Shown piece by piece: positions 9,733 through 23,527 of a DNA stretch of 39,343 nucleotides. This stretch comes from Gammaproteobacteria bacterium. GTDB lineage: Bacteria; Pseudomonadota; Gammaproteobacteria; SZUA-229. The first letter of the stretch is position 1. The number at the start of each line of letters is the position of its first letter. The notes below the pieces were generated by a model, which was not told the origin of the DNA, ran no database searches, and saw only the letters and a program-made list of their open reading frames with translations. The translations under genes and the position numbers were made by a program. Location of the stretch: positions 1 to 39,343 of the forward strand of contig JAOULC010000029.1 of NCBI GenBank assembly GCA_029882215.1, read 5' to 3'.

Positions 9733-12327
9733 ATGAATAAGGGAATCTGGCAAAGCGACTGGTTTGCCGGTATTGTAATTACACTTACATTTATGCTGTT
9801 TTCCGGTAGTGATTTAATTTCTAACATCGAACGCAGTGCCTATGACTTCGGTGTTCGTGCATCCAATAAAAAACCCAGTAACAAGGTATCTATTATTGCG
9901 ATCGATGACAATAGTATTGCCAATCTTGGGCGCTGGCCCTGGCCGCGCGATACTCATGCACAATTACTCAATTTACTTGATAAAGCGGATACCGCTGTTA
10001 TTGGCCAAACCATTTTCTTCACCGAGCCACAACTTGATCCCGGCCTTCAATCCATTAACGACCTGCTGAGCTTTTATAACACAAGCCACCTTGTTTCTGC
10101 TGCTGAAGTTTTTACTCAATTAAACTCTCAACTCGCTAACAATGTTCAGAACGATCTGAATAATTTAAAAAGCAAACTAATAACGGCTGAAAATCAGTTA
10201 AATACCGATCGTATACTGGCCACTGCGATACAAAAAAATGGCAAAGTAGTGCTTTCAATGCCATTTCTCTTCGGTCCTCATCTCGGCAAACAAGGCAAAC
10301 CATTACCCGATTATGTGACTAAAAACAATTTAACTAAATCTGTTGGCATGTCGGATGCGATTGAGAATGGTTTTGTACTGCCCACTACCAACGACGCCAT
10401 TCCACCCATTACTGAGCTAGGCAGCCATGCATTAGCAATTGGCAACCTGACATCTTCACCTGATAGCGACGGTGGTATAAGGCATGAAGCATTGGTAGTT
10501 GACCATTATGGCGTGTATTACCCCTCTCTTGCTTTAGTGCTTGCCGCCAAGGGTCTGAATCTCGAGTTAAGTGATATTCTAGTAAGACTTGGTGAAGGCG
10601 TTAAGGTTGGAAACCTCAATATTCGTACCAATCAGGCATTACAAATGCACACCTATTTTTACAATGACAAAGAAAATGGGCAATCTGCTTTTCAAATTGA
10701 TTCTTTCTATGATGTCATCAGCGGCAAAATTCCGCTTGAAAAATACAAAGATAAAATTGTCTTAATAGGTGCTACAGCCTTTGGTGTCGGCAACTCTCAG
10801 GTCACCCCGATTAAACCGTCAATGACCCCGGTCGAAACACTGGCACATTCGGTTTCGAGTATTCTAAAGCAGGATTTTTTTATCGTTCCTGAGTGGAGTC
10901 TTTTTGCTCAAATTGGCCTGATAGTTTTTATAGCCATCTACCTGATTATTATCTTACCCAGAATAAAAGCCGCGATGGCTTTTACTATAACAAGCACACT
11001 TACAATCGCCATACTGCTTACTCATTACGTATTAATGACTCAGGAAAACTGGTGGATTGAACTCATGCTACCCGTAATGTTGCTCATTTCCGGGCATCTG
11101 TTACTAACCACCAAACACTTCCTGCTCACTGAACGCGGTAAATTAAAATCTGACTTTGAGTCAGCAGAAAGCAATCGCATGCTGGGACTGTCTTTTCAGG
11201 GTCAGGGGCAGCTCGATATGGCTTTTGAAAAATTCCGTAAAATACCACTTGATAAAGCGACAATGGAGTTGCTCTATAACCTGGCGCTGGACTATGAAAG
11301 AAAACGTCAGTTTAACAAGGCCAGTTCAGTTTATAGCTACATTGCAGAGACAGACTCTAAATTCAAAGATATTAGTCAGCGCCTTGCCCGTACTAAAGCA
11401 ATGGAAGAAACGGTTATCTTGGGAGGCACTGGTGGCTCTTCAGCCGGTGGCAGCCTGCTTCTCGATGGTGCCGGCATACAAAAGCCCATGCTGGGCCGCT
11501 ATGAGGTAGAAAAAGAGCTGGGTAAAGGCGCCATGGGTTCTGTTTATCTTGGTAAAGATCCCAAAATAAGCCGTATTGTAGCGATTAAGACCATGGCTTT
11601 ATCTCAGGAGTTTGAAGAAGATGAGCTACAGGATGTAAAAAACAGATTTTTCCGTGAGGCCGAAACTGCCGGACGACTGAGTCACCCCAATATTGTGACA
11701 ATCTATGATGCCGGCGAAGAGCACGATCTGGCCTATATCGCCATGGAGTATATCAAGGGTACTGATTTATCAGACTTCACTAAATCTGATAGCCTATTAC
11801 CACTGATCAAAGTAATCTCTATCATTGCACGGGCAGCCGATGCACTCGATTATGCTCACCAGCAAAATGTAGTGCATCGTGATATAAAACCAGCCAATGT
11901 TATGTATGAACGTGAGTCAGATTCACTTAAAATAACCGATTTTGGCATCGCCAGAATTACCGACTCAAGTAAAACCAAAACGGGCATGGTTTTAGGCACC
12001 CCCTCATACATGTCTCCTGAACAACTTGCCGGAAAAAGAGTTGACGGCCGATCGGACTTATTTTCTTTAGGCGTTATGCTTTTTCAGCTGGCAACTGGTG
12101 AATTACCATTCCAGGCGGACTCAATGGCAACACTTATGTATAAAATAGCTAATGAACCACATCCAGACCCGGGCACAATTCGCAAAGGACTACCAAGATG
12201 CATTACAATCATCATCAACCGGGCAATGGCTAAAAACATTGATAAACGCTACCAAAAAGCATCACAAATGGCATCTGACCTGCGCAAATGCGCTCAAATC
12301 ACAATGAAAGCTGCGCAGAAACAATAA
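9733..12327 (+). CDS. CHASE2-TPR-Ser/Thr protein kinase
   Basis: Membrane-anchored eukaryotic-type kinase, 864 aa. Order: N-terminal membrane segment (about 10-30), periplasmic CHASE2 sensor (about 32-380, including IDDNSIANLGRWPWPRD), three membrane segments (about 389-409, 414-434, 440-459), a short TPR-like helical region (480-550), a linker, and a kinase domain (590-855). Kinase residues are complete: Gly-loop GKGAMG (597-602), Lys619, Glu642, HRD 715-717 with Asn722, DFG 736-738, and an activation loop with several Thr/Ser ending in SPE 761-763. The Arg before the catalytic Asp suggests control by activation-loop phosphorylation. The linker carries an ETVIL site that could dock the FHA protein once phosphorylated (inference). 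It is followed by its likely phosphatase after 1 nt. The ligand is unknown. Confidence 0.93.
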   Translation: MNKGIWQSDWFAGIVITLTFMLFSGSDLISNIERSAYDFGVRASNKKPSNKVSIIAIDDNSIANLGRWPWPRDTHAQLLNLLDKADTAVIGQTIFFTEPQLDPGLQSINDLLSFYNTSHLVSAAEVFTQLNSQLANNVQNDLNNLKSKLITAENQLNTDRILATAIQKNGKVVLSMPFLFGPHLGKQGKPLPDYVTKNNLTKSVGMSDAIENGFVLPTTNDAIPPITELGSHALAIGNLTSSPDSDGGIRHEALVVDHYGVYYPSLALVLAAKGLNLELSDILVRLGEGVKVGNLNIRTNQALQMHTYFYNDKENGQSAFQIDSFYDVISGKIPLEKYKDKIVLIGATAFGVGNSQVTPIKPSMTPVETLAHSVSSILKQDFFIVPEWSLFAQIGLIVFIAIYLIIILPRIKAAMAFTITSTLTIAILLTHYVLMTQENWWIELMLPVMLLISGHLLLTTKHFLLTERGKLKSDFESAESNRMLGLSFQGQGQLDMAFEKFRKIPLDKATMELLYNLALDYERKRQFNKASSVYSYIAETDSKFKDISQRLARTKAMEETVILGGTGGSSAGGSLLLDGAGIQKPMLGRYEVEKELGKGAMGSVYLGKDPKISRIVAIKTMALSQEFEEDELQDVKNRFFREAETAGRLSHPNIVTIYDAGEEHDLAYIAMEYIKGTDLSDFTKSDSLLPLIKVISIIARAADALDYAHQQNVVHRDIKPANVMYERESDSLKITDFGIARITDSSKTKTGMVLGTPSYMSPEQLAGKRVDGRSDLFSLGVMLFQLATGELPFQADSMATLMYKIANEPHPDPGTIRKGLPRCITIIINRAMAKNIDKRYQKASQMASDLRKCAQITMKAAQKQ

Positions 12328-12328
12328 C

Positions 12329-13156
12329 ATGACTGATAAAAACATTATATATATAGAAGGCATGACTGATACGGGTCTTATACGTGCTCATAACGAAGAC
12401 AGTATTGGCAATGACCTGTCAATAAGTCTTGCCGTATTAGCTGATGGCATGGGTGGCCATAAAGGTGGTGAAGTTGCCAGTGCACTGGCAGTTAATACTG
12501 TTTTGAATGACTTGCCCGGCGAGCTTGAACGCTGTAAACGACTTGAAATCGACGAAAATGTCAGTGGTTATAGCTACCAAAGTATCGCCATTAAAAATGT
12601 GATTGAAAAAGCAAACTCTGTCATTTTTCAGGCTGCAAGCAAACAAATTCAGTATGAAGGTATGGGTACCACTATCGTTGTTACCATGTTCTACGGCAAC
12701 CGCATGAGTGTTGCACATGTGGGTGACTCACGTATGTATCGTTTACGCGAGCATGAAATGGAACAAATCACCAGCGATCACTCTTTACTTCAGGAGCTGA
12801 TTGACCGCGGTTTTTACACACCCGAGGAAGCTAAAAAATCTCTTAATAAAAATCTCGTCACCAGAGCACTGGGTATTGAAGAGAGTGTAAAAATCGACAT
12901 TACAGAAGAGATCGTTCTACCTGAAGACAGCTACCTGTTGTGTTCTGATGGATTATCAGACATGGTCGATGACAGAAGAATTACTATGATTTTAGAAGAG
13001 AACAAGGCGCATATTGATGTTGCCTGTTCCGAACTCATTCAGCAGGCAATTGACAATGGCGGACACGACAATATTTCTGTCATCGTTATACAACCCAACA
13101 AACAAGGGTCAGGCCTGAATAAAATTGTGTCTAAGTTTAAGGACATTTTTTCTTAA
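12329..13156 (+). CDS. PP2C-family Ser/Thr protein phosphatase
   Basis: Metal-dependent (PPM/PP2C) phosphatase of the Stp/PrpC/PstP type, 275 aa, cytoplasmic, no membrane segment. All family motifs are present: RAHNEDS (19-25), ADGMGGHKGGE (38-48) with metal-binding Asp39 and Gly40, HVGDSRMYR, CSDGLSD and GGHDNISV. The start codon is 1 nt after the kinase stop, so it is almost certainly coupled. It should remove the phosphates added by the upstream kinase and keep the kinase off in the absence of signal. Confidence 0.95.
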   Translation: MTDKNIIYIEGMTDTGLIRAHNEDSIGNDLSISLAVLADGMGGHKGGEVASALAVNTVLNDLPGELERCKRLEIDENVSGYSYQSIAIKNVIEKANSVIFQAASKQIQYEGMGTTIVVTMFYGNRMSVAHVGDSRMYRLREHEMEQITSDHSLLQELIDRGFYTPEEAKKSLNKNLVTRALGIEESVKIDITEEIVLPEDSYLLCSDGLSDMVDDRRITMILEENKAHIDVACSELIQQAIDNGGHDNISVIVIQPNKQGSGLNKIVSKFKDIFS

Positions 13157-13177
13157 TATTCAACGCTGGACATGGAA

Positions 13178-13903
13178 ATGACAAAAGTAACGATATTTCA
13201 AGACTTAAAAATAAAATCCGAATATGAAATCACCAGCAACACCACCACTATCGGCAGACATGACAACAACGACATCTGCATAGATAATTTATCAATCAGC
13301 GGACGTCATGCTCAGATTTTAAAAGCCGGAGATGATTATTTTATTGAAGATCTGAACAGCAGTAATGGTACCTATGTAAATGGCAACCTGATTAAAAAGT
13401 ACCTGCTGAGTAATGGTAATGAAATAAGAATTGGTAAATATGAATTAAAATTTCAAACGGATTCCGCCGCGGCAAAACCGGTTCGCGAAGAAAATGAGTT
13501 TGAAAAAACCATGATTATTCGTCCGGACTCTATCGGTTTACCGGAAAGTGCCGGTGACTCGAAGATAGATAAACAGATGAACGCTATCGCTGCCAAACTT
13601 GCAACAGAGCAGCAGCAACACAAAGCGCCGCCGAAAAATGCCAGCTTACAGTTATTGAGCGGTGCAAATGCTGGCAAAACACTGCCACTAACAAAAGCAC
13701 TGACCACTCTTGGAAAGCCAGGCGTACAGGTTGCAGCGATTACCCGACGACCAACAGGTTATTATATTTTGCATGTCGAAGGCGGCGCTAACAACGGGCA
13801 CCCGACTATAAACGGTGACATCGTTGGCTCTAAAGCCAGCCCGCTCAATAATAATGACATTATTGAGGTGGCTGGCATCAAGATGGAGTTTAATGTTAGC
13901 TGA
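13178..13903 (+). CDS. FHA-domain protein, probable kinase substrate and adaptor
   Basis: Soluble protein of 241 aa with an N-terminal FHA phosphothreonine-binding domain (about 18-95). Binding residues are visible: GR in TIGRHD, SISGRH, and LNSSNGTYVNG. A linker follows with a threonine in EFEKTMIIRP, then a Gln-rich stretch, then a second FHA-like beta domain (about 155-241) that lacks the GR and SxxH signatures and looks degenerate. FHA proteins beside kinases (GarA, Fha1) are phosphorylated at such N- or C-flanking threonines and then fold back on themselves; that role here is inferred. I chose the ATG at 13178 because a GGA lies 7 nt before it; the ATG at 13172 has no spaced site. It ends 11 nt before the convergent rlmD stop. 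Confidence 0.85.
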   Translation: MTKVTIFQDLKIKSEYEITSNTTTIGRHDNNDICIDNLSISGRHAQILKAGDDYFIEDLNSSNGTYVNGNLIKKYLLSNGNEIRIGKYELKFQTDSAAAKPVREENEFEKTMIIRPDSIGLPESAGDSKIDKQMNAIAAKLATEQQQHKAPPKNASLQLLSGANAGKTLPLTKALTTLGKPGVQVAAITRRPTGYYILHVEGGANNGHPTINGDIVGSKASPLNNNDIIEVAGIKMEFNVS

Positions 13904-16509: not shown

Positions 16510-19302
16510 ATGACAAATTACAGCATAAGAAAAAGGGTACTTTTACTTGCTTTACTGCCAACAGCAATCACTGTATTTTCTCTTGTCGGCTATTTCACCT
16601 ACTCAAGTATTCAGGATGTTGAGACCACACTAAACCAGCGCGGTCAGGACATTTCCAAATATTTGTCAAAAATCAGTGAGGTTGGTGTATACACGGGAGA
16701 CATTGAGTTTCTCGAGCGACACATGAAAACCACCTTTACCGAAGGTGATATTCATAAGATAAGCATTCTGGACAAAAATAATGAAACGATTACATCATTA
16801 GTTCACAATAACACCTCAACTGTTAATGAAAAACCCTATCGTTTTTTAATCAAAGAAAAATATTTAACCTTTAAAGCCAGTATTATTGATACTACTGTCA
16901 ATCAAGATAAGTATGATCTTAACGGAGCTGAAAATCACTCACAGCCAAGGCAGTCCCTTGGAACAGTCATCTTAATAATGTCTTCCATTCAGGCATCCAT
17001 ACAACAATTCAATATTTTCGTTAAAAGCCTTATCATTGCTTTTATTGGTTTAGTACTGAGTACTATTCTTGCTCTGTATATCAGCCAGGGCGTTATTAAC
17101 CCGATACAAAGTTTAACCAGTGCTGTGAGACGTATTGCAGCTGGTAACCTTAATGTTCATGTCAATATAGAGACTTCCGGTGAACTTGATACCCTGGTTA
17201 AGGGTTTCAATAATATGACAGAGGAGCTATCGATAGCCCGACACAACCTGCAAAATCAGGTACACGCAGCAACCAGTACTCTCAAAAACACTCTGGATGA
17301 ACTTGAAAAGAAAAACATTACATTAGATATATCTAAAAGTATGGCGCTTGATGCCAGCAGAATTAAATCAGAGTTTTTAGCCAATATGAGTCACGAAATA
17401 AGAACTCCAATGAATGGTATTATTGGTTTTGTTGAGTTACTTGAAAAGACAAATTTGACGCCTCAACAATCTCAATATATTGACACCATTCATGTTTCAG
17501 CAAACAGCTTACTGACTATCATAAATGACATACTTGATTTTTCAAAAATCGAATCCGGAAAACTTGATATTGAAATTATTGAATTTGATCTGCTTGAACT
17601 GATCGAGGAGATAATTACCATTATGTTGCCACTTGCTCAGAAAAAGAAAGTTGAGCTGATTTTTCACCGCGCCATTGATATGCCAAGATTTTTATTCGGC
17701 GACCCGTCACGTATACGTCAGATACTGTTAAACCTGATTGGTAATGCCATCAAGTTTACACAGCAGGGATACGTCGCTATAAGAATCCTCTTTTCTATAA
17801 ACAATGAAAACAATTATAACTTCAAATTTACAATAACCGATACCGGTGTCGGCATGAGCGAAGTTAACAAGCAGCGTTTATTTAATGCTTTCACACAGGC
17901 AGATACTTCTATCACACGTCGCTTTGGTGGTACAGGACTTGGTCTCGTTATTTCAAGAAGTCTGGCAAACCTGCTACACGGAGAAATTAATTTTGAAAGC
18001 AGCCTTGATTCTGGCTCTGTTTTCTGGTTATCACTGCCCTTAAAAGCCTCTTTTCAGCCACATAAGCATGACTTATCACAGCTTAAAGAAAAACACGTTA
18101 TACTCTACGAAAGCACCGCGCAATTACGACTCAGCAGCCGCCAACTCCTGAATATTTTCAGATCAAATATTCAGCAAGTCACTAATATTAAACAATTAAA
18201 GTCTTTACTTAAAAGCAATCTCATTAATTTTGACTATATGATCATCGGCATCAGCTATGCACAAACACAATCACGAGCTGATTTCACAAGCTTTATTTAC
18301 GAATGCTCGCTTAAAGGCATTCCTGTATTTGCTCTAATAAGCTCCGGAGATCACTCTCATTATAAATACTATTTTGATCAGGGGTTTTCACTCTGCCTTT
18401 TCAGAAACAACCCAATAGACAAAACATTAAACAGTATTAGTAATTATTTCAGCGGAAACAAAAGTGAAGTCAGCAACCATGAAGTCAACCGGTTAAATGC
18501 CGACTGGTCCGATCTGAGTATTCTCATCGTCGATGATAATAAAATAAACCTGCATCTTGCAAATGCAATACTGGAAAACTGGAATGTAAACACCTACACC
18601 GCATCAAACGGAGTCGAAGCGATTCAACTCTGTGAAGAACGGCACTTTGACCTTATTTTCATGGATCTGCACATGCCAGAAATGGATGGCATTGAAGCCA
18701 CAACAAACATCCGTGCCGGAACCAGTAATAATTCTGCAACAACTATAATAGCTTTAACGGCTAATGCAATGCCCGATGAAAAGGAAAAAATATTTGCTTG
18801 TGGGATGAATGATATTTTGTTGAAGCCAGTAACAGAATATCAGGTTTATGAAAGAATAATTCATTTTTGTAATGTAAAAACAGCACCCGATCTCAGTGAG
18901 ATTAACTCTGATACTCACAAGCAGGGCACAATATATGATGAGCAAGTCAATGATATAAATCTGACTTGCTTTGACAGCAAAGAGTCTATTAAGCTTGCAG
19001 GTGGCAATAAAGAACTTGCTCGCGAACTATTCACTATGCTGATCGCTGAGTTACCAGGCTATCTTGAAAAAATCAGATCTGCTTTGACAGCAAACAATAT
19101 CAAGGATCTTAAATATTTTATTCATAAGATCAATGGTGCCACCAGCTACTGCGGTGTTCCAAGGCTAAGATATGCAGCATCCAGACTAGAGAGAAAAATT
19201 GACAGCAATCACCTCGATACATTGAGCACTGATACTGAGCTGGTTATCGACAGTATAAATGAGCTTGTAGAGTACAAACCGTCATTTTACGATGATCGGT
19301 AA
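16510..19302 (+). CDS. barA: BarA/GacS-type hybrid sensor histidine kinase
   Basis: Tripartite sensor kinase, 930 aa, of the kind that phosphorylates UvrY/GacA and acts through Csr/Rsm small RNAs. Order: TM1 (9-31), periplasmic sensor (32-170), TM2 (171-193), HAMP (193-245), HisKA with phospho-His295 in MSHEIRTPMNG, ATPase domain (N-box Asn412, DTGVGM, GGTGLGL), a receiver-like segment without acidic pocket (about 525-645), a true receiver (670-785; phospho-Asp719 in MDLHMPEMDG, Lys772), and an HPt domain (about 825-920) with His872. The relay His295-Asp719-His872 is complete. The partner regulator is not in this window. The name BarA rests on architecture and the nearby pdxJ/cysM/rlmD genes; other tripartite kinases share the architecture. 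Confidence 0.85.
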   Translation: MTNYSIRKRVLLLALLPTAITVFSLVGYFTYSSIQDVETTLNQRGQDISKYLSKISEVGVYTGDIEFLERHMKTTFTEGDIHKISILDKNNETITSLVHNNTSTVNEKPYRFLIKEKYLTFKASIIDTTVNQDKYDLNGAENHSQPRQSLGTVILIMSSIQASIQQFNIFVKSLIIAFIGLVLSTILALYISQGVINPIQSLTSAVRRIAAGNLNVHVNIETSGELDTLVKGFNNMTEELSIARHNLQNQVHAATSTLKNTLDELEKKNITLDISKSMALDASRIKSEFLANMSHEIRTPMNGIIGFVELLEKTNLTPQQSQYIDTIHVSANSLLTIINDILDFSKIESGKLDIEIIEFDLLELIEEIITIMLPLAQKKKVELIFHRAIDMPRFLFGDPSRIRQILLNLIGNAIKFTQQGYVAIRILFSINNENNYNFKFTITDTGVGMSEVNKQRLFNAFTQADTSITRRFGGTGLGLVISRSLANLLHGEINFESSLDSGSVFWLSLPLKASFQPHKHDLSQLKEKHVILYESTAQLRLSSRQLLNIFRSNIQQVTNIKQLKSLLKSNLINFDYMIIGISYAQTQSRADFTSFIYECSLKGIPVFALISSGDHSHYKYYFDQGFSLCLFRNNPIDKTLNSISNYFSGNKSEVSNHEVNRLNADWSDLSILIVDDNKINLHLANAILENWNVNTYTASNGVEAIQLCEERHFDLIFMDLHMPEMDGIEATTNIRAGTSNNSATTIIALTANAMPDEKEKIFACGMNDILLKPVTEYQVYERIIHFCNVKTAPDLSEINSDTHKQGTIYDEQVNDINLTCFDSKESIKLAGGNKELARELFTMLIAELPGYLEKIRSALTANNIKDLKYFIHKINGATSYCGVPRLRYAASRLERKIDSNHLDTLSTDTELVIDSINELVEYKPSFYDDR

Positions 19303-19368: not shown

Positions 19369-20097
19369 TTAACTTCTGGTCATTCGTGACTTGATTAACT
19401 TTACTGCTTCTGGCAAGCCAAGAAATATTGAGTCCGCAATAATGGCATGACCAATATTAAGCTCCACTATTTCTTTGATTTGTGCAATCGCAGCAACATT
19501 ATGAATATTCAAACCATGCCCGGCATTTACCTGCAAGCCAATTGAGGCTGCATATTCTGCCATCATTTTTATTCTGTTTAATTCTTCGCCAATAGCGCAT
19601 TCATCTTTCAAATCAGCAAAATGTCCTGTGTGTATTTCTATCACAGGCGCACCGCATCGTTTAGCTGCATCAACCTGTGCTTTATCCGCATCAATAAACA
19701 GTGATACTCGTATACCTGCCACTGCTAATTGACTGCATGCCAGCTTAATTTTATCTTCCTGTATAACCACATCCAGTCCACCTTCTGTCGTTAGCTCTTC
19801 CCTTTTCTCAGGTACCAGACAACAATCTTCAGGCTTAACTCTGCATGCAATTTCAATCATTTCATCCGTCACCGCCATCTCAAGATTCAGTTTGGTTTGA
19901 ATGGCTGCTTTCATACGATAGACATCTTCATCCTGAATATGACGACGATCCTCTCGCAAATGCATAGTGATGCTATTGGCACCCGATAATTCAGCCTGAA
20001 GAGCTGCATGAACAGGATCAGGATACGATGTTCCTCTTGCTTCTCTGAGAGTTGCAACGTGATCGATATTAATTCCAAGGTAAATCGGATTAGACAT
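19369..20097 (-). CDS. pdxJ: Pyridoxine 5'-phosphate synthase
   Basis: Condenses 1-deoxyxylulose 5-phosphate with 3-amino-2-oxopropyl phosphate to make the vitamin B6 ring, 242 aa, octameric TIM barrel. Typical motifs are [16 protein letters not shown] near the N-terminus, [29 protein letters not shown] and NAGHGLN. I chose the ATG at 20097 because the family begins one or two residues before this motif; the ATG at 20106 adds three residues and lacks a ribosome site. The gene usually paired with it, acpS, is not seen next to it; downstream lies the convergent sensor kinase. Confidence 0.95.
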
Positions 20098-20129
20098 AAG
20101 CACCATATTATTCAGTAATTATTGAGGGA

Positions 20130-20251: not shown

Positions 20252-20281
20252 TTGAAAGATAATTTGCTATGGTTTTATACT
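20252..20281 (+). promoter_or_regulatory. Promoter of the cyclase-HD operon
   Basis: -35 TTGAAA at 20252-20257, an 18-nt spacer, and -10 TATACT at 20276-20281. The start of transcription would be about 10 nt before the cyclase ATG, giving a very short leader. Confidence 0.5.
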
Positions 20282-20297
20282 ACCAAATTGAAATTCA

Positions 20298-22535
20298 ATG
20301 ACACAGGACACGGCTAAACGGAATATGCATAAAAACATCAAATCAATAATAAGTGCCTGCATAATTCTTTTGTTCATTATGCAGCCAATTGGCCTGTTTA
20401 ACCTGCCACTACTCAATCAAATTGAAAACTTCACCTACGATACACGCTTAAAATACACAGCACCTTATACCATAGACAGCAATGTCGTCATACTCGACAT
20501 TGATGAAAAGAGCCTGGCGAAGCTGGGCCAGTGGCCCTGGAACCGGGATATTATAGCTAAGCTGGTCGATAATCTTTTTGATCACTACCAGGTCAATACC
20601 CTGGGCTTTGATATTATCTTTGCAGAGGCCGATCTCGACAATAGCTTAGAAACATTTAGTAACCTGGCGAACGGGCCGCTTAAATCCAATAGAGAATTTC
20701 TCAACGAATATAGAAAGATACTTCCTTCACTTAACCACGACAAAATCTTTGCTGACAGCCTGTTTAACCGTAAAACCATTTTAGGCTATGCATTCATCAA
20801 TGAAGATAACGCCGGAGATACAAGCCTGCCTAAACCGGCCCTGACACCGCATGCAGATATCGCGGGGAAACTGAGCCTGATTCAACAAAAAGCCTTTATA
20901 GGCAATTTACCTCAGCTTCAAAACAAGGCACTTGCTGGCGGTTTTATTGACAACCCCAGTATCGCTTATGATGCGGACGGAGTATTCCGCCGCGTGCCAT
21001 TATTACAAATGCATAAAGGCCAGATATACGAATCCTTAGCGTTCGGTCTTTTTCGCTCGGCAATAGGCTCACCTGCGATCGAACTGGATGTAGAAGAAAT
21101 TGATGATGCTGAAACCGATATAAACCGAATAAGAGTCGGTAATTACCAGATTCCAGTAGACCATGAAACCAATGTACTGGTGCCCTATCGCGGATACTGG
21201 CGTAGTTTTCCTTATATTTCAGCCGTTGATGCACTGAATAAATCTGCAAAAATCTCTGAACTCAAAGATGCCATTGTCATTCTTGGTACCTCAGCTGCAG
21301 GCTTAAAAGACCTGAGAACGACGCCTTTTGAAACAGGCTATCCGGGCGTTGAGGTACACGCGAATATCGTCTCCGGCTTGTTAGAGGGGCGAATCAAAGA
21401 ACAGCCTTCTTATACTTATGCACTGGAGTTTTTATTATTATTAGCGCTGGGCATCTTGTTGACATATATCTTACCCAAGCTTTCTCCACTCTATACCACT
21501 TTACTGACAGTTCTGACACTCTGCCTGCTAATAGCAGGAAATTTATACGCATGGCAAATACTTAATCAGGTACTGCCTCTCACTAACCCTCTGCTGTTAG
21601 TTTTAACCCTATTTGGTCTGCATATGTCCTATGGATTTTTTGTCGAATCTCTTCATAAACGGCAGATCACGCGACTTTTTGGTCAGTATGTGCCACCTGA
21701 GCTGGTTGATGAGCTAAGTGAACACCCGGAAGCATTATCAGTCGATGGCGAAACACGAGAGATGTCGGTTCTATTCAGTGATGTGAGAAACTTTACAACT
21801 ATTTCTGAAAGCCTCGAACCGAAAGAACTTACTCAGTTCATTAACGGTTTTTTAACCCCGATGACAAAAATAATCCATCAGCACAGAGGTACCATCGATA
21901 AATACATGGGGGATGCTATCATGGCCTTCTGGGGTGCTCCGCTTTCCGATGAACAGCATGCACGCAACAGTCTTAATGCCGGTATGACAATGATTAATGA
22001 AATGAAAAACCTGAGCTCATTGTTTAGACAAAAAGACTGGCCTGAAATAAAAATTGGTGTCGGAATTAACAGCGGACCCATGAACGTCGGTAATATGGGA
22101 TCAGAATTTCGCATGGCCTATACCGTTCTTGGCGACACTGTAAACCTTGGCTCCAGACTTGAAGGACTTACAAAAAACTACGGCGTCGATATTATCGTCA
22201 GTGAGTACACAAAAAACCTGGTAGAAGAATATGAATACCGTTTTTTAGATAATGTCCGGGTCAAAGGTAAAGACCAGCCGGTCATGATATATGAGCCAAT
22301 AAAGCTTAAAGCCGAGATCACCGCAGAGGAACATGCAGAACTTGAGCAATATCAGAATGCACTGCAGTGCTTCCTGGCTCAGGACTGGACAAATGCACAT
22401 GACCAGCTGTCAGACCTTGTAAAGAATTTTCCTGATAAAAAAATATACAGCATCTATATGGACAGAGTTAATGTATACAAAAAGACCCCGCCGGATACTG
22501 ACTGGGGTGGCGTATTTACACATACTAGCAAGTAA
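20298..22535 (+). CDS. CHASE2-class III adenylate cyclase
   Basis: Membrane cyclase of 745 aa predicted to make cAMP from ATP. Order: membrane segment (about 14-34), periplasmic CHASE2 sensor (40-365, including LDIDEKSLAKLGQWPWNRD), three membrane segments (375-393, 398-418, 426-448), catalytic domain (485-660) and a TPR-like helical tail. Metal ligands are Asp495 (FSDVRNFT) and Asp539 (DKYMGDA). The purine-specifying residues are Lys535 and Thr609 (YTVLGD): the Lys/Thr pair marks class IIIb adenylate cyclases, several of which respond to bicarbonate. Asn616 and Arg620 are present. Guanylate cyclases would have Glu and Cys/Ser instead. No clear ribosome site precedes the ATG at 20298; the ATG at 20325 is a possible alternative. 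Confidence 0.92.
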   Translation: MTQDTAKRNMHKNIKSIISACIILLFIMQPIGLFNLPLLNQIENFTYDTRLKYTAPYTIDSNVVILDIDEKSLAKLGQWPWNRDIIAKLVDNLFDHYQVNTLGFDIIFAEADLDNSLETFSNLANGPLKSNREFLNEYRKILPSLNHDKIFADSLFNRKTILGYAFINEDNAGDTSLPKPALTPHADIAGKLSLIQQKAFIGNLPQLQNKALAGGFIDNPSIAYDADGVFRRVPLLQMHKGQIYESLAFGLFRSAIGSPAIELDVEEIDDAETDINRIRVGNYQIPVDHETNVLVPYRGYWRSFPYISAVDALNKSAKISELKDAIVILGTSAAGLKDLRTTPFETGYPGVEVHANIVSGLLEGRIKEQPSYTYALEFLLLLALGILLTYILPKLSPLYTTLLTVLTLCLLIAGNLYAWQILNQVLPLTNPLLLVLTLFGLHMSYGFFVESLHKRQITRLFGQYVPPELVDELSEHPEALSVDGETREMSVLFSDVRNFTTISESLEPKELTQFINGFLTPMTKIIHQHRGTIDKYMGDAIMAFWGAPLSDEQHARNSLNAGMTMINEMKNLSSLFRQKDWPEIKIGVGINSGPMNVGNMGSEFRMAYTVLGDTVNLGSRLEGLTKNYGVDIIVSEYTKNLVEEYEYRFLDNVRVKGKDQPVMIYEPIKLKAEITAEEHAELEQYQNALQCFLAQDWTNAHDQLSDLVKNFPDKKIYSIYMDRVNVYKKTPPDTDWGGVFTHTSK

Positions 22536-22540
22536 ATATT

Positions 22541-23527
22541 ATGCCTGATAATAGCCGCCGAAAAGACTTTGATGTGACCGACAGTATACAGGTCACTTCT
22601 GCGCATGCCGTATGCAACGCGGTACGAGAAATATTTACCAGCTTATTTGACGTGAAATATTTCTCTCCTGTCCAGCAGAGCTTTGAGGACTTTGAAAAAC
22701 TATTTGAAGGTGAGTTTGAAAATTACATGGCTTGTGATACTTTTTATCACGACAAACAGCACACGCTCGACATGACGCTTGCATTAGCCCGGCTGATTGA
22801 AGGCTATCAGCAGGTCACCAGCAAAGGCGAGCAGCTCAGTGCTGAATATACCGCCATAGGCATTATTACTGCACTGTATCATGATTCCGGCTATATACGC
22901 GAGACTGGAGACAGTAATAGCAATGGTGCCGTATACACTAAAGTACATGTCGCCCGAAGCGCCTCTTTTTTATCCAGATATTTACCAATGATTGGTTTAG
23001 CTGACTATATTGATATAGCTGCCAACATCGTCCACTACACCGGCTATGAAGTCAAACCAGCTGATATTAAATTAAAAGAAAAGAAGCTTCATACTTTAGG
23101 CTACATGCTTGGCTCAGCTGATTTGATTGCACAAATGTCAGACCGTTGTTATCTGGAAAAATGCCGCGACAGACTTTATCCAGAATTTGTCTTAGGAGGG
23201 ATCTCAGAAGTCAATAACACGGACGGCTCAACTGATATTATTTATGCATCAGGAGACGATCTGCTTGAAAAGACACCGGATTTTTATAACGGAGAAATCA
23301 ACAACCGTCTCAACAAACTATTTAACGGCACCTACAAGTATGCCGAAAAACATTTCGGGGAAAGAAACCTATATATAGAGGCTTTGGAGAAGAATATAAG
23401 TCACTTATTAAAGCTGCTAAATAAAGGTAAGTTGAGCGAGCTTATCAGAATCCCCCTTGTTAACAACGGCACTATTTTTGCCAACGCATCAAATGCCGAA
23501 GAAATAAGAAAACTCATCATCAAGTAA
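22541..23527 (+). CDS. HD-domain phosphohydrolase, possible cyclic-nucleotide phosphodiesterase
   Basis: Soluble protein of 328 aa with the HD signature H...HD...D. Visible are YHDKQHTLD (69-77), ALYHDSGY (111-118, His114-Asp115), His136, His165 and Asp194 in GSADL. Their order and surroundings recall class I cyclic-nucleotide phosphodiesterases (YHNxxHxxD ... HDxxH ... TxxD). One difference is Tyr118 where those enzymes have a second His. The start is 5 nt after the cyclase stop without a clear ribosome site, implying coupling. The likely role, inferred from motifs and position, is to degrade the cAMP made by its neighbour. It is not HD-GYP (no GYP motif) and not RelA/SpoT. Its last 8 nt overlap the convergent hpt gene. 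Confidence 0.8.
   Translation: MPDNSRRKDFDVTDSIQVTSAHAVCNAVREIFTSLFDVKYFSPVQQSFEDFEKLFEGEFENYMACDTFYHDKQHTLDMTLALARLIEGYQQVTSKGEQLSAEYTAIGIITALYHDSGYIRETGDSNSNGAVYTKVHVARSASFLSRYLPMIGLADYIDIAANIVHYTGYEVKPADIKLKEKKLHTLGYMLGSADLIAQMSDRCYLEKCRDRLYPEFVLGGISEVNNTDGSTDIIYASGDDLLEKTPDFYNGEINNRLNKLFNGTYKYAEKHFGERNLYIEALEKNISHLLKLLNKGKLSELIRIPLVNNGTIFANASNAEEIRKLIIK

What the first reader, a model, noticed from the sequence alone, without database searches (positions are those of the whole stretch)
20298..23527. Adenylate cyclase and phosphodiesterase-like HD protein in one transcript
Seen: a CHASE2 cyclase with the class IIIb Lys535/Thr609 pair, then 5 nt later an HD protein with YHDKQHTLD, ALYHDSGY and GSADL blocks in the order of class I cyclic-nucleotide phosphodiesterases. 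Known: bacterial cAMP hydrolysis is usually by CpdA-type class III enzymes; animal-type HD PDEs are rare in bacteria. Inference: synthesis and breakdown are made as a coupled pair, giving a sensor-driven cAMP pulse.
Basis: partly seen in the sequence, partly recalled or inferred. Interest (0 to 1): 0.8.

Follow-up and report, generated by a model that had tools for sequence, protein, structure and literature searches.

The report
CHASE2 cyclase paired with HD phosphohydrolase
A bacterial enzyme predicted to make the signal molecule cAMP sits next to an uncharacterised metal-dependent hydrolase that may destroy the same signal; the two genes stay together across one bacterial order, but the hydrolase is not a true animal-type phosphodiesterase and its activity has not been tested.

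Summary
In detail: a CHASE2 class IIIb cyclase (20298-22535) is followed after 5 nt by an HD protein (22541-23527) with YHDKQHTLD, ALYHDSGY and GSADL. The HD protein fails class I phosphodiesterase membership: no Pfam match, HDxGY instead of HDxDH, Thr/Ser at the purine-Gln position. Its YHx3H-to-HD half matches PDE4/5/9 beyond column shuffles, but on equal terms two other HD proteins of the genome match as well, so kinship specific to PDEs is not shown. It belongs to an uncharacterised HD family near NCBI's Npun_R2479 family. In the order the cyclase lies directly upstream in 35 of 36 HD-bearing genomes (the 36th contig ends there). Outside it the pair was seen in 1 of 14 genomes, though all of those have class III cyclases. 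In selected relatives, such cyclases lie beside CpdA (curated cAMP phosphodiesterase; four genomes) or a class-II-like candidate (one). A plant cyclase-PDE fusion with Thr at the same position hydrolyses cAMP (literature). Best reading: an HD phosphohydrolase that removes the cyclase's product, a little under even odds. Structure prediction failed; activity is unknown.

The parts
20298..22535 (+). CHASE2 class IIIb nucleotidyl cyclase, 745 aa: N-terminal hydrophobic segment, CHASE2 sensor, hydrophobic stretches at about 374-449, catalytic domain 486-662
   Evidence: Pfam CHASE2 9.7e-53 and Guanylate_cyc 1.6e-23; PDB relatives such as CyaB 3r5g; residues and hydropathy
22541..23527 (+). HD-superfamily phosphohydrolase, 328 aa, no hydrophobic segment; candidate cyclic-nucleotide phosphodiesterase
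   Evidence: No Pfam match; Npun_R2479 HD family 5.2e-12, below cut-off; invariant H70, H74, H114, D115, D194
22536..22540 (+). 5-nt gap between cyclase stop and HD start
   Evidence: Sequence; no terminator-like site between the genes
20252..20281 (+). Promoter-like match TTGAAA-18-TATACT just upstream of the cyclase (consensus match only)
   Evidence: 10 of 12 positions, a score shared with one other site; 14 matches found against 9.5 expected (sd 3.3), so near chance
19369..20106 (-). pdxJ, divergent; part of the conserved barA-pdxJ-cyclase-HD gene order
   Evidence: Pfam PdxJ 2.6e-100; gene order
16510..19302 (+). BarA-like hybrid sensor kinase, conserved neighbour
   Evidence: Pfam HisKA, HATPase_c, Response_reg, Hpt; gene order

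Best explanation
The two genes form a signal-on/signal-off pair. The membrane CHASE2 cyclase makes a cyclic nucleotide, most likely cAMP, in response to an outside signal (family and catalytic residues shown; signal and product not tested). The soluble HD protein is a metal-dependent phosphohydrolase that hydrolyses that product, doing the job that CpdA would do beside related cyclases in some other gammaproteobacteria. The HD metal ligands and the conserved pairing are shown; substrate and reaction are inferred. It is not a class I PDE by membership: it comes from an uncharacterised HD family, near Npun_R2479, that was probably joined to the cyclase once, at or before the base of this order.
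For: Pairing: HD in 36 of 54 order genomes, cyclase ortholog in 39 of 54; both 35, HD only 1 (G004, contig edge), cyclase only 4, neither 14; Fisher 1.3e-8 (kinship and genome incompleteness not corrected). By coordinates the cyclase is directly upstream in 35 of 36. The pair persists while the gene beyond HD differs between genera (23 stretches). One change of linkage on a 36-row tree, support 88/79, 90% of bootstrap trees. Class sample: 17 of 17 genomes with a full-length HD protein carry a class III cyclase against 238 of 369 overall (Fisher 0.001, 0.003 without the own family). CHASE2 ortholog at E<=1e-170: 10 of 17 against 58 of 369 (my count from its table; Fisher 4e-5, 0.002 without own family). 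Analogy: class III cyclase directly beside CpdA in L155, L156 (CHASE2) and L158, L159 (dCache); 4 of 4 of these CpdA proteins pass NCBI's 3',5'-cAMP PDE cut-off; a PDEase_II-like gene 37 nt behind a CHASE2 cyclase in L148. In two genomes of family f10 HD lies downstream of cNMP-binding, PP2C and FHA genes. N-half match to the PDE4D/5A/9A profile: 39.2, 0 of 300 shuffles, largest 23.4. Precedent: MpCAPE has Thr at the Gln position (PMC8115329) and hydrolyses cAMP (PMC5159850); passages read.
Against: I found no biochemical data for a close relative. Class I membership fails: no Pfam hit for the window protein, no PDB match up to E 10, best PDB profile hit PDE8A only E 0.47; HDxGY, not HDxDH, in 20 of 20; Gln replaced by Thr/Ser in 20 of 20. 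The PDE resemblance is not specific: single PDEs score P 0.0094, 0.0017 and 0.0046 against the merged family profile, the genome's other HD proteins L099 0.00063 and L090 0.0011; with profile A3 alone L099 (0.00056) beats the PDE alignment (0.0018). C-half at chance; shallow profile A1 P 0.11. Pfam HD is matched more often than PDEase_I (11 and 2 of 20, both below cut-off). Outside the order HD is next to the cyclase in 1 of 14 genomes, and 48 of 58 genomes with a close CHASE2 ortholog lack a full-length HD protein. Four order genomes keep the cyclase without HD. HD does not replace CpdA: 10 of 17 HD genomes have it. This genome holds a class-II-like PDE candidate. Both structure predictions failed (pLDDT 35.5 and 36.5).
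Confidence: 0.46

Rival explanations
1. The HD protein is an active phosphohydrolase of another nucleotide or signal (for example a linear nucleotide, a 2',3'-cyclic nucleotide or a dinucleotide), working in the same response but not hydrolysing the cyclase's product.
For: No cyclase homologue was found beside it in 13 of 14 HD-bearing genomes outside the order (upstream gene not visible in G215 and G298). It lacks the class I purine Gln and HDxDH, and its HD region matches other HD proteins as well as it matches PDEs. CpdA co-exists in 10 of 17 HD genomes. The HD superfamily has many substrates (established knowledge).
Against: All 17 full-length HD genomes carry class III cyclases; curated PDEs occupy the same place beside related cyclases in some relatives; tight pairing in the order.
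Confidence: 0.35
2. The HD protein binds the cyclase or its product and regulates it without hydrolysing it.
For: Conserved pairing and conserved residues outside the metal site (H136, R139, Q198, D201, Y204).
Against: H70, H74, H114, D115 and D194 are invariant in 20 of 20 members, unlinked ones included, as expected for a catalyst.
Confidence: 0.08
3. The pairing is only inherited gene order with no functional link: HD landed behind the conserved barA-pdxJ-cyclase block and was carried along.
For: One change on the tree; barA-pdxJ-cyclase is itself conserved; gaps reach 578 nt, median 140; the Fisher tests are not corrected for kinship.
Against: Divergence within the order is large (47-78% identity to the window protein) and the gene on the far side of HD has changed; 14 genomes lack both genes and 4 keep the cyclase alone; association with class III cyclases also holds outside the own family.
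Confidence: 0.11

Closest known systems
CAPE (COMBINED AC with PDE) of bryophytes and other streptophytes
   Same: Class III cyclase coupled with a metal-dependent phosphodiesterase; Thr at the purine-Gln position in MpCAPE, GbCAPE and AaCAPE, and MpCAPE hydrolyses cAMP much better than cGMP (passages of PMC8115329 and PMC5159850).
   Different: CAPE is one polypeptide with a class I PDE domain that keeps all eight metal-binding residues; here there are two genes, a CHASE2 sensor, and an HD protein without HDxDH.
Class III cyclase plus CpdA gene pairs in Gammaproteobacteria (L155, L156, L158, L159)
   Same: Class III cyclases (two of them CHASE2) with a curated cAMP PDE family member adjacent.
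   Different: CpdA is calcineurin-like (class III PDE), not an HD protein; in L155 and L156 it is divergently transcribed. The four were selected, so they give no frequency.
Npun_R2479 family HD metalloprotein (NCBIfam NF045583)
   Same: The only HD family in NCBIfam that the window protein matched (5.2e-12). Profile A3 against A2 (A2 member L051 matches NF045583 at 8.2e-86): 99.5% probability over 237 columns; shared YHx3H, HDxGY (HDIGF in one A2 member), HxxR, ADLxxQxxD.
   Different: 45.5 bits against a 400-bit cut-off, so not a member. The model's title gives no substrate, and no paper listed held the name.
Class I cyclic-nucleotide phosphodiesterases (PDE4, PDE5, PDE8, PDE9)
   Same: YHx3H-to-HD region in register (39.2, 0 of 300 shuffles), ADL block, D-to-F spacing 54.
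   Different: No HDxDH, Gln to Thr/Ser, C-half not significant, below the Pfam cut-off; other HD proteins match the family profile as well.
Sinorhizobium meliloti CHASE2 adenylate/guanylate cyclases
   Same: CHASE2 cyclases in cAMP signalling (abstract of PMC13001267).
   Different: No HD partner is mentioned in the abstract; the rest of that paper was not read here.

Membership tests
Class III (IIIb) nucleotidyl cyclase with CHASE2 | Pfam Guanylate_cyc and CHASE2 above curated cut-off | tested here: met
   83.7 bits against 21.9 and 179.8 against 26.3
Class III (IIIb) nucleotidyl cyclase with CHASE2 | Metal Asp pair, Lys/Thr substrate pair, transition-state Asn and Arg | tested here: met
   D495, D539, K535, T609, N616, R620, aligned with CyaB 3r5g; roles of the residues recalled
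Class III (IIIb) nucleotidyl cyclase with CHASE2 | Makes cAMP rather than cGMP | not testable with these tools
   The Lys/Thr pair predicts ATP as substrate (established knowledge); no assay
HD superfamily | H...HD...D metal ligands conserved across the family | tested here: met
   H74, H114, D115, D194 in 20 of 20 members
HD superfamily | Pfam HD above curated cut-off | tested here: not met
   No hit for the window protein; 11 of 20 relatives match weakly, best E 5.9e-4, 20.5 bits against 22
Class I cyclic-nucleotide PDE | Pfam PDEase_I above cut-off | tested here: not met
   No hit for the window protein; weak hits in 2 of 20 relatives, best E 0.0081, 16.3 bits against 24.8
Class I cyclic-nucleotide PDE | YHx3H with a His four residues before the metal His | tested here: met
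   H70 and H74 invariant in 20 of 20; in register with PDE4D. Shared with the Npun_R2479-like group A2, so not specific
Class I cyclic-nucleotide PDE | HDxDH motif | tested here: not met
   HDxGY in 20 of 20 members
Class I cyclic-nucleotide PDE | Purine-binding Gln three residues before the clamp Phe | tested here: not met
   Thr in 19 and Ser in 1 of 20 in the anchored register; MpCAPE shows that Thr can be tolerated
Class I cyclic-nucleotide PDE | Closer to PDEs than to other HD families | tested here: inconclusive
   PDE alignment against merged profile P 8.7e-5, but single PDEs 0.0017-0.0094 against 0.00063 and 0.0011 for two other HD proteins
Class I cyclic-nucleotide PDE | PDE-type C-terminal half | tested here: inconclusive
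   Local profile score at chance, 132 of 300 shuffles; fixed-register z 2.4, 3.1 and 1.7 with anchors chosen by eye; another offset scored higher than zero in the first test (-9) and in the third (4 and 8)
Class I cyclic-nucleotide PDE | PDE fold | tested here: inconclusive
   AlphaFold2 models of no use, pLDDT 35.5 and 36.5
Npun_R2479 family (NF045583) | Score above equivalog cut-off of 400 bits | tested here: not met
   45.5 bits
CpdA (class III PDE) | Metallophos fold / NF008359 | tested here: not met
   No such match for the HD protein
Cyclic-nucleotide phosphodiesterase (function) | Hydrolyses 3',5'-cAMP or cGMP | not testable with these tools
   Needs an assay

The most novel reading that the evidence does not exclude
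The HD family is an unrecognised bacterial class of 3',5'-cyclic-nucleotide phosphodiesterase, related to animal class I PDEs through a shared HD ancestor, that uses Thr in place of the purine Gln and HDxGY in place of HDxDH, and that was recruited as the dedicated off-switch of a CHASE2 cyclase.
Probability: 0.3. Interest if true: 0.75.

Novelty: new variant of a known kind. Interest (0 to 1): 0.5.

Why it matters
Known bacterial cAMP phosphodiesterases are mainly of the CpdA type and class-II type (established knowledge). In the order studied here CpdA was found in 3 of 54 genomes. A cyclase-linked HD family is a named, testable candidate for the missing step, and class III cyclases of this class of bacteria are seen beside three different hydrolase folds (HD, calcineurin-like, MBL). 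If the HD family hydrolyses cAMP, it would be a prokaryotic enzyme of the same superfamily as the drug-target class I PDEs and could bear on where those came from.

Tried and rejected
Class I PDE membership was tested by Pfam, PDB sequence search, profile comparison and motif positions, and rejected. An N-half resemblance stands against column shuffles but is not better than that to other HD proteins on equal terms.

Structure prediction: a single sequence and a three-row alignment gave useless models, so no fold search was run.

'HD replaces CpdA' was tested and not borne out class-wide: 10 of 17 HD genomes have CpdA against 161 of 369 overall. It remains only that CpdA is rare in this order.

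CRP-type sites: TGTGA-N6-TCACA with up to 2 mismatches gave 13 matches in the window against 20.6 expected, so no signal. A promoter-like match over the gene junction (22515-22542) is within a scan near chance level. Viral contigs gave no relatives; plasmids one remote hit.

Paper searches: I saw listings only, except passages of PMC8115329, PMC5159850, PMC3770947, PMC6416229 and PMC9293780 and the abstract of PMC13001267. The listed titles and starts of abstracts showed nothing on this HD family or on CHASE2 cyclase-HD pairs: 0 papers; 10 of 36 listed, none with 'Npun_R2479'; 15 of 25; 22 of 22; 15 of 79; 15 of 111; 8 of 797; 12 of 1,352. Most listed papers were not opened, and subscription papers are mostly not held.

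Full report
What is there. The first is a CHASE2 class III cyclase with D495, K535, D539, T609, N616 and R620 at positions aligned with P. aeruginosa CyaB 3r5g. The second has no Pfam match, no PDB match up to E 10, and two NCBI matches, of which one is relevant: the Npun_R2479 HD family at 5.2e-12, far below its cut-off. Its H70, H74, H114, D115 and D194 are invariant in 20 of 20 diverse relatives (A3).

Is it a class I phosphodiesterase? By membership, no. PDEase_I is hit weakly in 2 of 20 relatives and Pfam HD in 11 of 20, all below cut-off. HDxDH is HDxGY here. The class I purine Gln is Thr in 19 and Ser in 1 of 20 when aligned on the following Phe. Profile comparison with PDE4D, PDE5A and PDE9A gives P 0.11 with A1, 0.0018 with A3, 0.0028 with A2 and 8.7e-5 with A3 and A2 merged. 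The signal lies in the YHx3H-to-HD region: N-half score 39.2, none of 300 column shuffles reached it, largest 23.4; the C-half scored at chance, 132 of 300 shuffles as high. Shuffling destroys the HD motif itself, so this shows HD-superfamily kinship, not kinship to PDEs in particular. The fairer control is against it: one by one against the merged profile, PDE4D, PDE5A and PDE9A give P 0.0094, 0.0017 and 0.0046, while of 14 other HD proteins of the genome L099 gives 0.00063 and L090 0.0011; with A3 alone L099 (0.00056) also beats the PDE alignment. The spacing from the metal Asp (ADL) to the Phe is 54 in 16 of 20 members, as in PDE4D and PDE9A (PDE5A 56); fixed-register z values are 2.4, 3.1 and 1.7, but in the first and third test another offset scored higher. 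I chose those anchors by eye, so this is a hint only. PDEase_I itself is rare in the phylum: over its cut-off in 1 of 349 genomes, with 51 of 238 positions matched. Two AlphaFold attempts failed (pLDDT 35.5; 36.5).

Does the pairing hold? In the order, HD was found in 36 of 54 genomes (in two of them as a fragment or broken frame, G017 and G001) and the cyclase ortholog (E<=1e-100) in 39 of 54: both 35, HD only 1 (G004), cyclase only 4, neither 14 (Fisher 1.3e-8; kinship and incompleteness not corrected). Of the 32 loci examined (30 distinct genomes), all but L018, whose contig begins just before HD, have the cyclase upstream. Coordinates add the other six HD genomes, so 35 of 36. In 23 stretches cyclase and HD are neighbours in all; pdxJ was labelled in 20 and barA in 22; the gene beyond HD differs between genera. 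Four genomes of one genus keep barA and the cyclase without HD. A tree of 36 HD proteins from A1 and A3 (four rows dropped: L002, L003, L048, L049) needs one change for linkage, support 88/79, 90% of bootstrap trees. The tool warns that G262 (L034), the only linked member outside the order, sits on a long branch, so one origin including it is probable, not shown. The gap is 5-578 nt, median 140, over 29 loci, so tight coupling is not general.

Outside the order. In a class sample, 24 of 369 genomes matched: 3 of the own family, 14 others with full-length proteins (15 loci), 2 remote, 1 fragment and 4 of the Npun_R2479 type. Only G262 of the 14 has the cyclase beside HD, again in pdxJ-cyclase-HD order; no cyclase homologue was found in the other stretches, up to 7 kb each side where the contig allowed. 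The upstream gene is not visible in G215 and G298. The 17 full-length HD genomes all carry a class III cyclase, against 238 of 369 overall (Fisher 0.001, 0.003 without own family). Ten of 17 carry a close CHASE2 ortholog (E<=1e-170) against 58 of 369 (counted from its table; Fisher 4e-5 and 0.002). In the reverse direction, 48 of those 58 lack a full-length HD protein. Kinship and genome size are not controlled.

What stands in the same place elsewhere. From the printed, capped lists I picked five genomes in which a cyclase and CpdA lay on one contig close together, so these give no frequency. L155 and L156 have a CHASE2 cyclase divergent from CpdA (gaps 200 and 74 nt); L158 and L159 have a dCache cyclase overlapping CpdA on the same strand; L157 has another gene between. 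The four adjacent CpdA proteins pass NCBI's cut-off for 3',5'-cAMP phosphodiesterase. In L148 the CHASE2 cyclase is followed after 37 nt by an MBL-fold protein over the Pfam PDEase_II cut-off, though its best NCBI matches, all below cut-off, are to RNase Z. Among the 30 cyclase loci (L122-L151), HD follows in the window's own locus, L123, L133 and L134. In two genomes of family f10 HD lies downstream of cNMP-binding/rhodanese, PP2C and FHA genes; that FHA family is present within the flanks of 11 of the 30 cyclase loci. These make a role in cyclic-nucleotide signalling likely, but do not prove the reaction.

Other cAMP hydrolases. CpdA was not found in the own genome and in only 3 of 54 of the order, while 161 of 369 class genomes had it, so the query works. 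This does not make HD a replacement: 10 of 17 HD genomes have CpdA, and G000 has an MBL-fold PDEase_II-like protein (L165).

Mechanism and precedent. I read the pair as synthesis and removal of one messenger. The closest working precedent is CAPE of liverworts: class III cyclase and class I PDE in one protein. MpCAPE has Thr in place of the purine Gln (PMC8115329, passages), and its partially purified PDE domain hydrolysed cAMP much better than cGMP, with activity lost when conserved His199 or His203 was changed (PMC5159850, passages). So Thr does not exclude cAMP hydrolysis; but CAPE keeps all eight metal-binding residues, while this family lacks HDxDH. Hydrolysis, substrate, signal and co-transcription remain inferred.

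Verdict. Observation confirmed, interpretation partly supported. This is a lineage-specific pair of a known cyclase type with an uncharacterised HD family: a new variant of a known kind.

Noticed in passing
window 9733-13903: A second CHASE2 protein, a CHASE2-Ser/Thr protein kinase (9733-12327), followed by PP2C (12329-13156) and FHA (13172-13903) genes, ends about 6.4 kb upstream of the cyclase; the FHA gene is homologous to FHA genes near CHASE2 cyclases in 11 of 30 loci.
   Followed up: partly
L064 6920-11323 and L068 6905-11008: Cluster of cNMP-binding/rhodanese, PP2C, FHA and HD genes in two genomes of family f10 (PP2C of L068 by position and sequence, not scanned): the HD family in a cyclic-nucleotide and phosphorylation neighbourhood without an adjacent cyclase.
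   Followed up: partly
L148 1465-4516: CHASE2 cyclase followed 37 nt later by an MBL-fold PDEase_II-like gene.
   Followed up: partly
L155, L156, L158, L159: Class III cyclases directly beside CpdA, two divergent (CHASE2) and two overlapping on the same strand (dCache).
   Followed up: partly
L050 1231-1764: HD homologue of 177 aa that keeps N- and C-terminal parts but lacks the catalytic core: remnant, or a non-catalytic form.
   Followed up: no
L165 1375-2139: PDEase_II-like MBL-fold protein in the window's own genome, upstream of what looks by eye like an SRP GTPase (ffh) gene; a second candidate cAMP phosphodiesterase.
   Followed up: partly
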